From Bacillota bacterium (lineage in GTDB: Bacteria > Bacillota > Bacilli > Alicyclobacillales > SLC66), in the NCBI GenBank assembly GCA_026627345.1, contig JAPNUP010000124.1:1-64000 (forward strand): DNA of 64,000 nucleotides. The letters are read 5' to 3'. The notes under the pieces are model-generated. The model was not told where the DNA came from, made no database searches, and saw nothing but the letters and a program-made list of their open reading frames with translations. The stretch's first letter is position 1. Each line of letters opens with the position of its first letter. Below are positions 22,348 through 54,759 of this stretch, piece by piece. The translations under genes and the position numbers were made by a program.

Positions 22348-23819
22348 GTAGGCAAACGATCGATTATCCACTTATTTTCGAACGCAGCACCAAAGGTCGT
22401 GCAGCCTATAGCCTGCCTGACCGCGATGTGCCAGACGTGGCGGTAGATCAGCTGATTCCGGCTGGCTATATGCGTCAGACAGCGCCCGCTTTGCCAGAAG
22501 TCAGCGAAGTCGATTTAATCCGGCATTATACTGGACTTTCTACGCGCAATCACGGTGTCGACACCGGTTTTTATCCACTCGGGTCGTGCACTATGAAATA
22601 CAACCCGAAGCGGCATGAACAAGCCGCCCGCTTGCCTGGCTTCGCACTCTTGCATCCGTATCAGCCGGAGGAAACTGTGCAAGGCGCGCTCGAGATGATG
22701 CATCGGTTACAGAATCATCTTGCTGAGATCACTGGGATGGATGCTGTAAGCCTCCAGCCTGCGGCCGGTGCTGCAGGTGAGTGGACAGGGCTGATGATGA
22801 TCCGCGCCTACCACGAACAACGCGGCGAGCGACGGACGAAAGTCATCGTGCCGGACTCGGCGCACGGGACCAATCCGGCAAGCGCCGCGATCGCGGGCTT
22901 CACGACGATCACAGTGCCGTCCGATGCCACAGGCGGTGTGGACCTAGCCGCGCTGCGCGACGCTGTAGGACCAGATACTGCCGCGCTCATGCTGACGAAT
23001 CCAAGTACCCTCGGGTTATTCGAAGGCCAGATTGTAGAGATTGCTCGCATCGTACATGACGCGGGCGGACTGCTCTACTACGACGGAGCGAACGCCAATG
23101 CGATTTTGGGCTATGCGCGCCCGGGCGACATGGGTTTTGACGTAGTTCATCTCAATTTACACAAGACGTTTACCACGCCACACGGCGGAGGCGGTCCAGG
23201 AGCAGGCCCAGTAGGTGTCAAGGCTGCGCTTGAACCTTTTCTCCCGGTTCCAGTAGTGACGCAAACTGAACAAGGCACCTACACGCTACAAAGTGATCGG
23301 CCGTACTCGATTGGCAAAGTGAAAGGGTTCTACGGCAATTTCGGTATTTTACTGCGCGCTTACGCGTATATCCGCACGATGGGGCCGGATGGTCTCAAAC
23401 GCGTCGCGCAAGACGCCGTACTCAATGCGAATTATCTGCGGGTGCGCCTGGCCGACAAGTACATGGTCGCGTATGATGTTTTGTGCAAGCATGAGTTTGT
23501 TTTGTCAGCCAAGCCGTTCAAAGTGCATGGTGTGCGAACCCTAGACATTGCGAAGCGGCTTCTTGACTTCGGGTATCATCCGCCGACGATCTACTTTCCG
23601 CTCAATGTGGAAGAAGCGATGATGATCGAGCCAACGGAGACAGAGAGCAAGGAAACACTAGATGCTTTTGCTGACGCACTGTTATCGATCGCAGATGAAG
23701 CGCTGAGCGACCCCGATCTCGTCAAACGTGCACCACACACTACTGTGATTGACCGTTTGGATGAGACGCTCGCTGCGCGCTCACCGGTGCTCACTTACCA
23801 GGCAAGTGTCAACAAATAA
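22344..23819 (+). CDS. gcvPB: Glycine dehydrogenase (decarboxylating) subunit 2
   Basis: C-terminal half of the split P protein and carrier of PLP: the lysine in [16 protein letters not shown] (about residue 274) forms the Schiff base. [13 protein letters not shown] is the other family signature. 491 aa, usual length. ATG overlaps the gcvPA stop, consistent with a heterotetramer made in equal amounts. Confidence 0.96.
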
Positions 23820-23886
23820 CCCGTTAGCGCAATAGGTTGTCCTTATGGTAGTATAGGACGGTATGTGCTTGGAGGATTGATCAGGT

Positions 23887-24372
23887 GTGAACATCTTGCT
23901 GTTGAATGGCCCGAATTTGAACCTGCTAGGGGTTCGCGAACCGGGGATCTACGGGACGCTCACCTTGTCGGTGATCGAAGAGCGCGTTCGCACACTCGCA
24001 GAACAACTCGGCGTCCAGTTGCGCGCTTTTCAGTCTAACCATGAAGGGGCGCTGATTGATCGCCTTCATGAAAGCAGCGAGCGTGAGCACGGCGTCATCT
24101 TCAACCCGGGGGCCTACACGCATTACAGCATCGCTTTGCGCGACGCTGTTGCGGCCATCAAGGTGCCAGTGATAGAGGTGCATCTGTCCAATGTCCATGC
24201 GCGCGAATCTTTTCGCCACCAGTCTATGATTGCCCCTGTCGCACGAGGTCAGATCAGTGGTCTGGGTGCGATCGGGTATGAACTTGCTTTGCGCGCTCTG
24301 ATCGATGAATTGCAACCCCAGTTGGGATCCGCAAACCATGCATCAGTTGCACGTACGAATGACACGTTATGA
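23887..24372 (+). CDS. aroQ: 3-dehydroquinate dehydratase, type II
   Basis: Third step of the shikimate pathway. [18 protein letters not shown] contains the catalytic Arg/Tyr loop; [28 protein letters not shown] and [17 protein letters not shown] supply the rest of the active site. 161 aa. GTG start with TTGGAGG upstream. B. subtilis has an M24 peptidase gene between aroQ and efp; here efp follows after 25 bases. Confidence 0.96.
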
Positions 24373-24397
24373 ATGATAAGGAGGCGGGTGCAAACCG

Positions 24398-24955
24398 ATG
24401 ATCTCGAGCAACGATTTTCGTACAGGCACGACGATTGAATATGACGGTCAGATTTGGCGCGTGATGGAATTTATGCACGTCAAACCTGGTAAAGGTGCCG
24501 CATTTGTACGCACTAAGCTGAAAAATATCCGTACCGGGGCTGTGCGTGAGATGACTTTTCGCGCAGGCGAAAAAATGCCCCGTGCACGCATTGAGAATCG
24601 CCAGATGCAGTATCTGTATAATGACGGCGATAACTTTACGTTTATGGATTCCGAGACGTTTGAGCAGATGATCATCTCGCGCGATATGCTGGAGTATGAG
24701 TTGAACTTCCTCAAGGAAAACATGAACTGCGTGGTGATCTTGTACGAAGGACAGGCGATCGGTGTCGATCTGCCGAATACAGTGGAGCTTGAAGTGGTGG
24801 AAACAGAGCCAGGTATCCGTGGTGACACTGCGCAAGGCGGCAGTAAACCGGCGAAACTTGAGACAGGTTACTCAGTGCAAGTTCCGTTTTTTGTAAATCA
24901 AGGTGAGAAGTTGATTATCGATACGCGATCCGGTTTATACGTTTCGCGTGCCTGA
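24398..24955 (+). CDS. efp: Translation elongation factor P
   Basis: Relieves ribosome stalling at polyproline. Three-domain KOW/OB protein of 185 aa. The tip loop of domain I reads [10 protein letters not shown] with Lys32, the residue that is modified in Bacilli (5-aminopentanol in B. subtilis). AAGGAGG lies upstream of the ATG. A terminator follows. Confidence 0.97.
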
Positions 24956-24973
24956 TTCATTCGGCTTGGCACG

Positions 24974-25013
24974 AAAGGCGCACGCTCTGTTGAAGGGCGT
25001 GTCGCCTTTTTTT
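24974..25013 (+). terminator. Rho-independent terminator after efp
   Basis: AAAGGCGCACGC (24974-24985) pairs with GCGTG and CGCCTTT (24997-25009) with one bulged T, followed by a T-run to 25013. Confidence 0.85.
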
Positions 25014-25026
25014 GCTTTCACATCTT

Positions 25027-25164
25027 TCACCTCGCAGTGCCAAGCGCTCGTTCTGAAGGCGCCGTCGGTTTTTTCAACATCGAGAACACGAACACCATAC
25101 ATAGTAAGAAAATGACCAAAAATGCCACGATCCATCTCATTAACAGGCTGGTTGCGTCACCCAC
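25027..25164 (-). CDS. Small single-pass membrane protein (45 aa)
   Basis: A 45-residue ORF on the minus strand that lies in an otherwise empty gap of about 400 bases between efp and spoIIIAA. GTG start at 25164 has GAGGAG nine bases upstream. The product is a short polar N terminus, one strongly hydrophobic segment (IVAFLVIFLLCMVFVFSML) and a basic tail (KKPTAPSERALGTAR), i.e. N-out/C-in by the positive-inside rule. I do not recognise a family. Evidence is coding-like composition plus the ribosome binding site, so it needs comparison in relatives. Confidence 0.55.
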   Translation of the reverse strand: MGDATSLLMRWIVAFLVIFLLCMVFVFSMLKKPTAPSERALGTAR

Positions 25165-25288
25165 TCGTCCACACTCCTCGAGTCGCCACTTGCGTCTTCC
25201 CATACTATGGTCTCTTTGCTTGGCAGGTTCTGATATATGCCTGTTCTCGGCGAATCTAGCGATTGTCTATTTTGCGCAGAGGCAAATG

Positions 25289-25317
25289 GTATAAACGAAC
25301 GTCTCGTCCCATATATA
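25289..25317 (+). promoter_or_regulatory. Putative sigma-E-type promoter of spoIIIAA-AH
   Basis: GTATAAA (25289-25295), 14 bases, then CATATATA (25310-25317). The match to the sigma-E consensus is partial, but spacing and position fit a mother-cell promoter; transcription would begin near 25325. Confidence 0.4.
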
Positions 25318-25352
25318 TGGACTACGTGTTAAGGGGACGAGGGGTGGCGCAC

Positions 25353-26297
25353 ATGACCACAGGGACGATCGCTTTGCCACAGAGCTTGTTACGTCTTTTA
25401 CCCGATGAAATCACGGATGTTCTGGCGCGACTTCCCGCGGATATATGCGCGGGGTTAACAGAAATTCGGTTGCGCGTAGAACGACCGCTTGAGTTGGTGG
25501 GCGTAACCGGTTATCTGCGGCCGACGGTGCGACCTGAGCACGTGCGCCATGTGATCGCTACCGTCACGGGGTCGTCTTTGCACGCTGTCGAAGCAGATGT
25601 AAGAGCGGGTTTTTTGACAGCGCCAGGCGGCCATCGCATCGGACTCGCTGGTCGCATGGTGCTAGACGCTGAGGGGCGCGTAAAGACGATGCGCGATATC
25701 GCCTCGTTGAACATCCGCATGGCTACTGCAGCGACAGACTGTGCGAAAAAGTTGTCGCCCTACCTTGTCGATGAACACGGACGCTTGCGCTCCTCTGTAT
25801 TTGTCGGGCCGCCGCTATCGGGTAAGACGACACTTTTACGGGATGCGTGTCGCTTGCTCGCGTCTGGTCAGTTTCACCAAAGGCTCGCGGCTATGCGCGT
25901 CGTGATTGTGGATGAGCGTTCCGAGATCGCTGCTTGTGTGCACGGTATCCCACAGTTCGATGTCGGAGCCTCAACTGACGTGCTCGATGGTTGCCCAAAA
26001 GCCGAAGGGATGATGATGGCACTGCGGGCGCTTGCACCGCAGGTGCTGGTTACTGACGAACTCGGTAGTGAAGCCGAAGCCGATGCTGTGGTGGCCGCTG
26101 CGCACACGGGCGTATCGTTTCTCGGAACGCTGCATGGCGCACCGTCCGCCTCTAGCGGCAGTCGTCCTTTGCTCGCCCGGCTGCTTCAAGCAGGCGCAGT
26201 CACCCGTGTGATCTTCCTTGACCCGAAAAATGGGCCTGGTCACATTGGACGAGTACTGGACGGTGCTGGTCGAGAGGTGGCGCGCGGATGGGTGTGA
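25353..26297 (+). CDS. spoIIIAA: Stage III sporulation protein AA, ATPase
   Basis: Secretion-type ATPase of the SpoIIIA-SpoIIQ channel that links mother cell and forespore. Family start (LLRLLPDEITDVLARLP), EIRLRVERPLEL, Walker A GPPLSGKTT and a Walker B-like VVIVDERSE. ATG 25353 has GAGGGG upstream; GTG 25344 in the same frame is equally possible. First of eight ordered spoIIIA genes; overlaps spoIIIAB. Confidence 0.93.
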   Translation: MTTGTIALPQSLLRLLPDEITDVLARLPADICAGLTEIRLRVERPLELVGVTGYLRPTVRPEHVRHVIATVTGSSLHAVEADVRAGFLTAPGGHRIGLAGRMVLDAEGRVKTMRDIASLNIRMATAATDCAKKLSPYLVDEHGRLRSSVFVGPPLSGKTTLLRDACRLLASGQFHQRLAAMRVVIVDERSEIAACVHGIPQFDVGASTDVLDGCPKAEGMMMALRALAPQVLVTDELGSEAEADAVVAAAHTGVSFLGTLHGAPSASSGSRPLLARLLQAGAVTRVIFLDPKNGPGHIGRVLDGAGREVARGWV

Positions 26298-26821
26298 GTC
26301 TCTTGCAGTGGTTGGGCAGCGGCACAGTGGTTGCCGGCACCGCCTCACTAGGCGGCAAAATGGCGGAGCGCTTTCACAAACGCCCGCAGGAATTGCGAGA
26401 ACTCGCCGGATTGTTACGCCAGCTTGCCGCTGAAATCAGTTATGCGCGCGTTCCACTGACTGAGGCGCTGGAACGGATAGGGCGATTCGCACCGCGCGCG
26501 AGCCCTGTGCGAGCGGTATTGGCGGAAGCGGGCGAGCGCTTGCAGACTCCAGGGATCACACTGGAAGAAGCCTGGAATGGCGCCTTACAGTCGAGATTTG
26601 CGAATACTTCGCTCAGTGCAGAAGACCGTTTGATCTTGGCTGCGCTCGGCGAAACGCTCGGACAAAGTGGGGCAGCAGAACAAGCGGGGCTCCTTGCCGC
26701 CGCAGTCGCTCAACTGGTAGATCGCGAAAGAGAAGCGGTGCGCGATCGCGATCGCTACGCACGCGTGTATCTCACAGTCGGCGTTCTTGTCGGGGCTTTG
26801 ATCGTAGTGTTACTGATTTAG
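26288..26821 (+). CDS. spoIIIAB: Stage III sporulation protein AB
   Basis: Membrane protein of the SpoIIIA complex, related to GspF platform proteins. A hydrophobic N terminus, helical middle (RELAGLLRQLAAEISYARVPLTEAL) and C-terminal membrane segment (YLTVGVLVGALIVVLLI). 177 aa, near the usual 171. Overlaps spoIIIAA by ten bases. Confidence 0.9.
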   Translation: MGVSLLQWLGSGTVVAGTASLGGKMAERFHKRPQELRELAGLLRQLAAEISYARVPLTEALERIGRFAPRASPVRAVLAEAGERLQTPGITLEEAWNGALQSRFANTSLSAEDRLILAALGETLGQSGAAEQAGLLAAAVAQLVDREREAVRDRDRYARVYLTVGVLVGALIVVLLI

Positions 26822-26862
26822 TCGAAGGGATGCGCTTGTTCCCGGTTGAGGGAGGACTCCTT

Positions 26863-27066
26863 ATGAGTCTCGAGTTACACGTGTTGTTTCAAATCGCCAT
26901 CGTCGGGATCGCCGCTGCAATCTTGGCGAGCGTGCTCAAAACCGCAGGGCGAGATGAGATTGCCAGTCTTGTGACCATCACCGCATTTGTTTTAGTCACA
27001 GCAGTCGTGGTGACCAATATCAGTCAACTATTTTTACAAATCAAAGAAGTCTTTTCTATCCAATAG
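26863..27066 (+). CDS. spoIIIAC: Stage III sporulation protein AC
   Basis: Small membrane protein with two hydrophobic segments (LFQIAIVGIAAAILASVL and ASLVTITAFVLVTAVVV). ATG 26863 has GGAGGA upstream and gives 67 aa, the family length; the frame is open to 26830. Part of the SpoIIIA channel assembly. Confidence 0.93.
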   Translation: MSLELHVLFQIAIVGIAAAILASVLKTAGRDEIASLVTITAFVLVTAVVVTNISQLFLQIKEVFSIQ

Positions 27067-54719: not shown

Positions 54720-54731
54720 TCCCGTTATTTC

Positions 54732-54759
54732 ACCCATTGAGCTACCATGGCATAGTCTA
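54732..54759 (+). promoter_or_regulatory. Putative sigma-K-type promoter of dpaA-dpaB
   Basis: ACC at 54732-54734, 16 bases, then CATAGTCTA (54751-54759), a perfect CATAnnnTA. In B. subtilis the spoVF operon is sigma-K dependent. The start would be near 54766, about 85 bases before dpaA. Confidence 0.45.

What the first reader, a model, noticed from the sequence alone, without database searches (positions are those of the whole stretch)
25027..25164. Hidden 45-aa membrane protein between efp and spoIIIAA
Seen: a minus-strand ORF with GAGGAG at ideal distance from GTG, one very hydrophobic segment and basic tail, filling a gap that otherwise has no gene. It is convergent with the efp terminator. 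Inference: a real small membrane protein, perhaps sporulation-related by position.
Basis: partly seen in the sequence, partly recalled or inferred. Interest (0 to 1): 0.5.

Follow-up and report, generated by a model that had tools for sequence, protein, structure and literature searches.

The report
Late-sporulation membrane microprotein beside spoIIIAA
The overlooked 45-residue reading frame is almost certainly a real gene: a one-helix membrane microprotein kept beside spoIIIAA across its bacterial order, with the promoter signature of genes switched on late in the mother cell during spore formation; its exact job is unknown.

Summary
Window ORF 25027-25164(-) is the only one of 458 ORFs of 30-70 aa with so hydrophobic a segment. 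An orthologue lies at this place in 58 of 61 relatives, with spoIIIAA divergent upstream in 57 of 58 and efp convergent downstream within 1.1 kb in 57 of 58; the two exceptions are contig ends. A start codon falls at a fixed distance from a conserved core, and substitutions are those of a coding frame (pS 0.76, pN 0.18). Motif search of 45 upstream regions finds the geometry and diagnostic C of sigma-K promoters. The derived matrix also hits upstream of the sigma-K-type gene dpaA (15 of 30), but of 0 of 30 SASP and 0 of 30 spoIVA genes at their own shuffle levels; at a common 10-bit level the counts are 7, 0 and 0. Homologues occur in other families, partly with the same locus and promoter. 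No Pfam or NCBIfam family convincingly covers it; YjcZ is distinct. Best reading: a new family of sigma-K-driven single-pass mother-cell microproteins. Its role is inference.

The parts
25027..25164 (-). small ORF, 45 aa (GTG start, stop included), single-pass membrane microprotein
   Evidence: orthologues in 58 of 61 relatives; coding pattern
25081..25134 (-). codons 11-28, hydrophobic core (W11 to S28); helix predicted for residues 3-31
25174..25179 (-). Shine-Dalgarno-like GAGGAG, 9 nt before the GTG
   Evidence: SD-like match of 4 nt or more before the aligned start in 57 of 58 relatives
25201..25230 (-). sigma-K-type promoter: -35 GAACC (25226-25230), 15 nt, -10 CCATAGTATG (25201-25210)
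25289..25318 (+). divergent sigma-E-type promoter-like site of spoIIIAA: GTATA, 15 nt, CCATATATAT (read by eye, not scored)
   Evidence: sequence; base rule from PMC517825 section 14
25263..26297 (+). spoIIIAA (mechanical ORF; the true start is probably further in, since this TTG lies before the sigma-E-type site)
   Evidence: Pfam Spore_III_AA 4.6e-69
24398..24955 (+). efp, elongation factor P, convergent neighbour
   Evidence: Pfam
24980..25010 (+). two overlapping terminator-like hairpins of efp, + strand only

Best explanation
This is a real gene of a so far unnamed family of single-pass membrane microproteins (32-45 aa in its order). It is transcribed late in the mother cell by sigma-K RNA polymerase from a promoter that ends 36 nt before the start codon, back to back with a sigma-E-type promoter of the spoIIIA operon. 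The peptide most likely inserts as one helix with its basic C-terminus in the mother-cell cytoplasm, in the mother-cell membrane including the outer forespore membrane. There it works as a small accessory that packs, through its conserved I, V, F, L, M and Trp residues, against itself or a partner during late coat or cortex maturation. Shown by computation: conservation, coding pattern, start, promoter motif. Inferred: expression time and compartment, topology. Guess (about one in four): the accessory role in coat or cortex maturation.
For: 58 of 61 relatives hold it at the same locus, with spoIIIAA divergent in 57 of 58 and efp convergent in 57 of 58. A start codon lies exactly 9 codons (18 of 18, window's family) or 7 codons (40 of 40, sister family) before the core. 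pS 0.764 against pN 0.181 over all pairs of 58; entropy by codon position 0.68, 0.23, 1.42. Motif log-likelihood 515.7 against 287.5-304.2 in 8 shuffled sets for 45 upstream regions (60 seeds for the real set, 30 for the shuffles). Sigma-K promoters: 5-nt -35, 14-16 nt gap, 10-nt -10; sigma-E and sigma-K share the -10, and position 4 of the -35 is C for sigma-K, T for sigma-E (PMC517825, section 14). In one search position 4 is C in 42 of 45 sites, G in 3, T in none. The matrix exceeds each set's own 95% shuffle level in 34 of 37 own sites held out, 15 of 30 dpaA, 0 of 30 SASP, 0 of 30 spoIVA, 3 of 37 on the spoIIIAA side. At one common level of 10 bits: 46 of 58 (not held out), 7 of 30, 0 of 30, 0 of 30 for tiny ORF, dpaA, SASP, spoIVA. 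The window's own dpaA has TCACC-N15-GCATAGTCTA. An intact sigma-K gene is in the genome. Outside the order, 9 of 15 homologues tested have a site over the 95% shuffle level, and 7 of 17 stretches have spoIIIAA divergent, 12 of 17 efp convergent. C-side more positive than N-side in 58 of 58; helix 3-31 predicted.
Against: No expression or protein data. The motif is below the 95% shuffle level in 7 of 58 relatives (G003, G005, G008, G012, G036, G049, G050). 8 of the 45 EM sites were left out of the matrix, and held-out sites had been found by an EM run that included them, so that test is partly circular. The dpaA test is not circular, but only 15 of 30 pass at their own level and 7 of 30 at 10 bits. 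At a lax 8 bits 4 of 30 spoIVA regions pass too. A promoter read by both sigma-E and sigma-K cannot be excluded (PMC517825 reports such genes). Outside the order 6 of 15 homologues do not reach the level (G147, G177, G197, G207, G216, G226), and of the 9 that do, G070 is not at this locus and has no C at position 4. No evidence on partner or phenotype.
Confidence: 0.7

Rival explanations
1. Accessory of the neighbouring SpoIIIA-SpoIIQ (A-Q) channel: the peptide binds or helps dismantle the complex once sigma-K is on.
For: Divergent adjacency to spoIIIAA in 57 of 58 relatives and in 7 of 17 stretches from other families.
Against: The promoter type is sigma-K, later than the sigma-E-type spoIIIA operon. 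In family f37 efp is convergent in 6 of 7 stretches while spoIIIAA is in none of the 7 (0.6-2.6 kb of upstream DNA read), so adjacency to spoIIIAA is not obligatory. Neighbour conservation of a divergent gene is weak evidence of joint action.
Confidence: 0.1
2. Membrane-active toxin or holin-like peptide, for example for mother-cell lysis, or a type I toxin.
For: Tiny, one hydrophobic helix, basic tail; late mother-cell timing would suit lysis.
Against: Kept at a fixed chromosomal site across an order, sporulation promoter, no Rfam match such as a toxin antisense RNA in 23500-27000, strong sequence constraint within the helix.
Confidence: 0.08
3. Sigma-E or dual sigma-E/sigma-K early mother-cell gene.
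For: The two sigma factors share the -10 element and some promoters are read by both (PMC517825, section 14).
Against: Position 4 of the -35 is C in 42 of 45, T in none; spoIVA upstream regions do not reach their shuffle level (0 of 30), though 4 of 30 exceed 8 bits.
Confidence: 0.1
4. Chance ORF, or a by-product of conserved DNA signals in the gap.
For: An antisense frame is also free of stops over the 23-codon core in 58 of 58.
Against: That frame has a weaker pattern (pS 0.54, pN 0.24) than the proposed one (0.76, 0.18); fixed start and SD.
Confidence: 0.01

Closest known systems
A3-type tiny membrane proteins of the same genomes (GGYTRWAVVFLIIFVLFFLLVPxY), unnamed
   Same: Profile match 97% probability, E 3e-11, over 32 columns; similar size, one helix, RW-x-VVFL-I-F start of the helix.
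   Different: Several copies per genome, Gly/Tyr-rich or Cys/Thr/Pro ends and a conserved Pro instead of a basic tail, few matches to the sigma-K matrix.
YjcZ_2 family (PF09680), YjcZ family sporulation proteins; Bacillus subtilis yjcZ is placed in the sigma-K regulon (PMC517825, passage)
   Same: Tiny single-helix sporulation proteins with late mother-cell control.
   Different: Profile comparison 5.9% probability over 8 columns; the A3-type paralogues come closer to YjcZ_2, 71% over 14 columns. PF09680 is in 0 of 58 carriers in the order and 0 of 18 genomes with the stronger matches outside it, against 59 of 200 in the class sample.
[quoted passage not shown]
   Same: A gene next to spoIIIAA, mother-cell regulon. 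That YqhV is a small membrane protein (DUF2619) is recalled.
   Different: YqhV transcription reads towards spoIIIA and is sigma-E and GerR controlled (PMC517825); YqhV-like ORFs occur as a separate gene near the new one in some other families (recognised by eye).
SpoVM and SscA of Bacillus subtilis (recalled)
   Same: Peptides of about 26-28 aa made in the mother cell and tied to the coat (recalled).
   Different: No sequence match was tested; named as analogues only.

Membership tests
YjcZ_2 (PF09680) | match to the family profile | tested here: not met
   PF09680 not among the 25 families shown of 34 matched by 31 members, nor for the window protein; no hit in the genome; hhalign 5.9%
YjcZ_2 (PF09680) | Gly/Tyr-rich N-terminus before FALIVVLFILLIIVG | tested here: not met
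   compared by eye, sequences, consensus
sigma-K regulon | promoter with 5-nt -35 having C at position 4, 14-16 nt gap, 10-nt CATA-type -10 | tested here: met
   51 of 58 over the 95% shuffle level, matrix not held out
sigma-K regulon | transcription lost in a sigK mutant | not testable with these tools
   needs an experiment
single-pass membrane microprotein | one hydrophobic helix of about 18-20 residues, under 50 aa | tested here: met
   core hydropathy 2.83-3.28 and length 32-45 in 58 genomes; helix 3-31 in the model of the window protein
single-pass membrane microprotein | membrane localisation | not testable with these tools
   needs an experiment
type I toxin | antisense RNA regulator at the locus | tested here: inconclusive
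   no Rfam match up to E 1; unknown antisense RNAs would be missed

The most novel reading that the evidence does not exclude
A previously unrecognised sigma-K-driven microprotein family, spread over several families of the class and, with its paralogues, seemingly standing in for YjcZ proteins where these are missing, that acts on the outer forespore membrane late in sporulation, for example by closing down the A-Q channel or preparing mother-cell lysis.
Probability: 0.1. Interest if true: 0.75.

Novelty: new member of a known kind. Interest (0 to 1): 0.5.

Why it matters
Genes of 32-45 codons are easily missed by annotation. Here one is kept at one spot across an order of spore-formers (Alicyclobacillus, Sulfoacidibacillus, Ferroacidibacillus and relatives), with a developmental promoter. 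It gives a concrete, small, deletable target next to the best-studied mother-cell operon, and its paralogues suggest a larger set of overlooked tiny spore membrane proteins.

Tried and rejected
Pfam and NCBIfam scans of the ORF and of 31 members: 34 Pfam and 27 NCBIfam families matched at least one member at E <= 0.5, best E about 7e-4 among those shown; for the window protein all lay far below their cut-offs (best Pfam 13.8 bits against 40); cut-offs for the other members were not shown. Taken as chance matches of hydrophobic helices. PDB profile search: one antibody chain at E 1.2. Rfam: no match. Generic sigma-70 scan: no promoter. A 58-aa start at 25203 was rejected (overlaps the -10, not conserved).

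Counts. One search's tally of 61 of 61 at E <= 10 was not used; only the 58 at the locus (G000-G057) were counted; G058 (62% complete, no spoIIIAA hit), G059 and G060 lack it. For the matrix I dropped 8 of 45 EM sites (G012, G003, G008, G034, G036, G049, G053, G050); their scores are. Only 30 loci each of dpaA, SASP and spoIVA (those handed out, best matches first) were tested, with starts chosen by a simple SD rule; a wrong start would hide a promoter. The class sample gave 74 of 398 at E <= 0.01, 39 of them in the order; 17 of the other 35 are weak (E 7e-4 to 0.01), and at least four of these (G076, G115, G122, G178) hold YjcZ_2, so they are probably YjcZ or chance. Of 17 stretches fetched outside the order two (G107, G121, tandem two-helix forms) were left out of the promoter test. 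A phylum-wide sample gave 1 of 398 at E <= 1e-6, the window's own genome; members of the order would have matched, so it evidently held no other, and it says only that the family is not seen elsewhere. About half of the YjcZ loci were evidently read on the wrong strand and were dropped; 12 sequences were aligned.

Papers. PMC517825: passages and section 14 read. PMC11796252 and PMC8313275: passages. All others: search listings only. No title or abstract start in those listings described this gene; the library holds open-licence papers only, so this is weak evidence of absence from print.

Full report
Observation. The ORF at 25027-25164 on the minus strand is as described: GTG, GAGGAG nine bases before it, 45 aa, one hydrophobic segment, basic tail, facing the efp terminator. 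Among 458 ORFs of 30-70 aa in the window it is the only one with an 18-aa stretch of mean hydropathy 2.6 or more. Four other ORFs of the gap have no Pfam match.

Conservation. A protein search of 61 genomes (own genome included) puts the best hit beside spoIIIAA in G000 to G057, that is 58 of 61; G058 is 62% complete and has no spoIIIAA hit either, G059 and G060 belong to other orders of the class. In 57 of 58, spoIIIAA is divergent upstream, and in 57 of 58 efp is convergent 29-1061 bp downstream; the two exceptions end at contig ends. Whether another gene lies between where efp is several hundred bases away was not examined.

Coding. A start codon lies exactly nine codons before the [RK]-[WF]-IV-[AV]-FL core in 18 of 18 genomes of the window's family and exactly seven in 40 of 40 of the sister family, with a Shine-Dalgarno match of four or more bases in 57 of 58 (G040 is the exception). 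Over 23 aligned codons pS is 0.764 and pN 0.181; codon-position entropies are 0.68, 0.23 and 1.42. One antisense frame is also stop-free in 58 of 58, with the weaker pattern 0.54 and 0.24, probably the shadow of a hydrophobic frame. Six columns are invariant in the 31 members aligned: I12, V13, F15, L16, F19, M23.

Promoter. An unbiased 30-base motif search on 45 non-redundant upstream regions found nnAC, 16 bases, then GCATNNNNTA-like or GGATANNNTA-like -10 (log-likelihood 515.7 against 287.5-304.2 in eight shuffled sets). In the window it is GAACC-N15-CCATAGTATG at 25230-25201. Eichenberger et al. 2004 (PMC517825, section 14) give for sigma-K a five-base -35, a 14-16 base gap and a ten-base -10, and say that sigma-E sites differ by T instead of C at position 4 of the -35. 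Position 4 is C in 42 of 45 sites, G in three, T in none. The matrix (37 of the 45 sites) exceeds each set's own 95% shuffle level in 34 of 37 held-out sites, in 15 of 30 upstream regions of dpaA (dipicolinate synthase, a sigma-K gene in Bacillus subtilis: recalled), in 0 of 30 SASP genes (sigma-G: recalled), in 0 of 30 spoIVA genes (sigma-E: recalled) and in 3 of 37 on the spoIIIAA side of the same gap. At one common level of 10 bits the counts are 46 of 58 (tiny ORF, not held out), 7 of 30 (dpaA), 0 of 30 and 0 of 30; at 8 bits 53, 11, 0 and 4. The window's own dpaA has TCACC-N15-GCATAGTCTA. Without holding out, 51 of 58 pass their shuffle level; G003, G005, G008, G012, G036, G049 and G050 do not. 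On the plus strand the window shows GTATA-N15-CCATATATAT at 25289-25318, T at position 4, a fair sigma-E site for spoIIIAA (by eye). So two back-to-back promoters of successive mother-cell sigma factors seem to share the gap. An intact sigma-K gene is present.

Wider family. With a profile of 31 members, 74 of 398 genomes of a class sample match at E <= 0.01, 39 in the order; 17 of the rest are weak. I fetched 17 stretches from other families. spoIIIAA is divergent next to the homologue in 7 of 17 (G147, G091, G216 and four of family f22), efp is convergent downstream in 12 of 17, including six of seven of family f37, where spoIIIAA was not found in the stretch. The three f14 genomes have neither. 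Of 15 tested, nine have a sigma-K-type site over the shuffle level, for example GCACA-N15-GCATGTACTA in G157, G167 and G187; G147, G177, G197, G207, G216 and G226 do not. A phylum-wide sample finds it only in the window's genome, 1 of 398. The same profile brings up paralogues of the type GGYTRWAVVFLIIFVLFFLLVPxY, several per genome, related by profile comparison (97%); the three examples scanned had no convincing Pfam or NCBIfam match. YjcZ_2 is distinct from the new family by profile (5.9%), less clearly so from the paralogues (71% over 14 columns). YjcZ_2 was found in 0 of the 58 carriers in the order and in 0 of 18 genomes with the stronger matches outside it, while 59 of 200 genomes of the class sample have it.

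Mechanism. One long helix (residues 3-31, AlphaFold without alignment, mean pLDDT 80), N-side near neutral and C-side +2.8 on average, C-side more positive in 58 of 58, hence N-out, C-in by the positive-inside rule (recalled). With sigma-K timing this places the peptide in the mother-cell or outer forespore membrane after engulfment. The constrained helix suggests packing against itself or a partner. What it does there is not shown.

Verdict. Real by all computed tests, unnamed, conserved, probably sigma-K controlled; a new member of the known kind of tiny sporulation membrane proteins, not an instance of YjcZ.

Noticed in passing
G000:C110:2570-2941 and G000:C86:52698-53045 (L309, L310): A second sigma-K-like gene lies in two halves on two contigs; the first half is followed by a large serine-recombinase-like ORF (by eye), and both contig ends carry parts of the same membrane-protein-like ORF. 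It looks like a short skin-type element splitting an extra sigma-K-like gene, beside an intact sigma-K at G000:C111:5568-6236.
   Followed up: partly
L121-L123, L258-L270, L273-L277 (G000 and relatives): Multi-copy tiny membrane proteins with the core TRWAVVFLIIFVLFFLLVPxY and Cys/Thr/Pro or Gly/Tyr tails, at least seven in the window's genome; three scanned had no convincing Pfam or NCBIfam match.
   Followed up: partly
genomes: YjcZ_2 (PF09680) is in 0 of 58 carriers of the new family in the order and 0 of 18 genomes with the stronger matches outside it; four genomes with only weak matches (E 0.001-0.01: G076, G115, G122, G178) do hold YjcZ_2.
   Followed up: partly
L116, L120 (G121, G107): Tandem two-helix versions of the same core in one ORF; neither spoIIIAA nor efp in the stretch.
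   Followed up: no
   Followed up: no
window 54730-54759: Strong sigma-K-type site TCACC-N15-GCATAGTCTA upstream of dpaA.
   Followed up: yes
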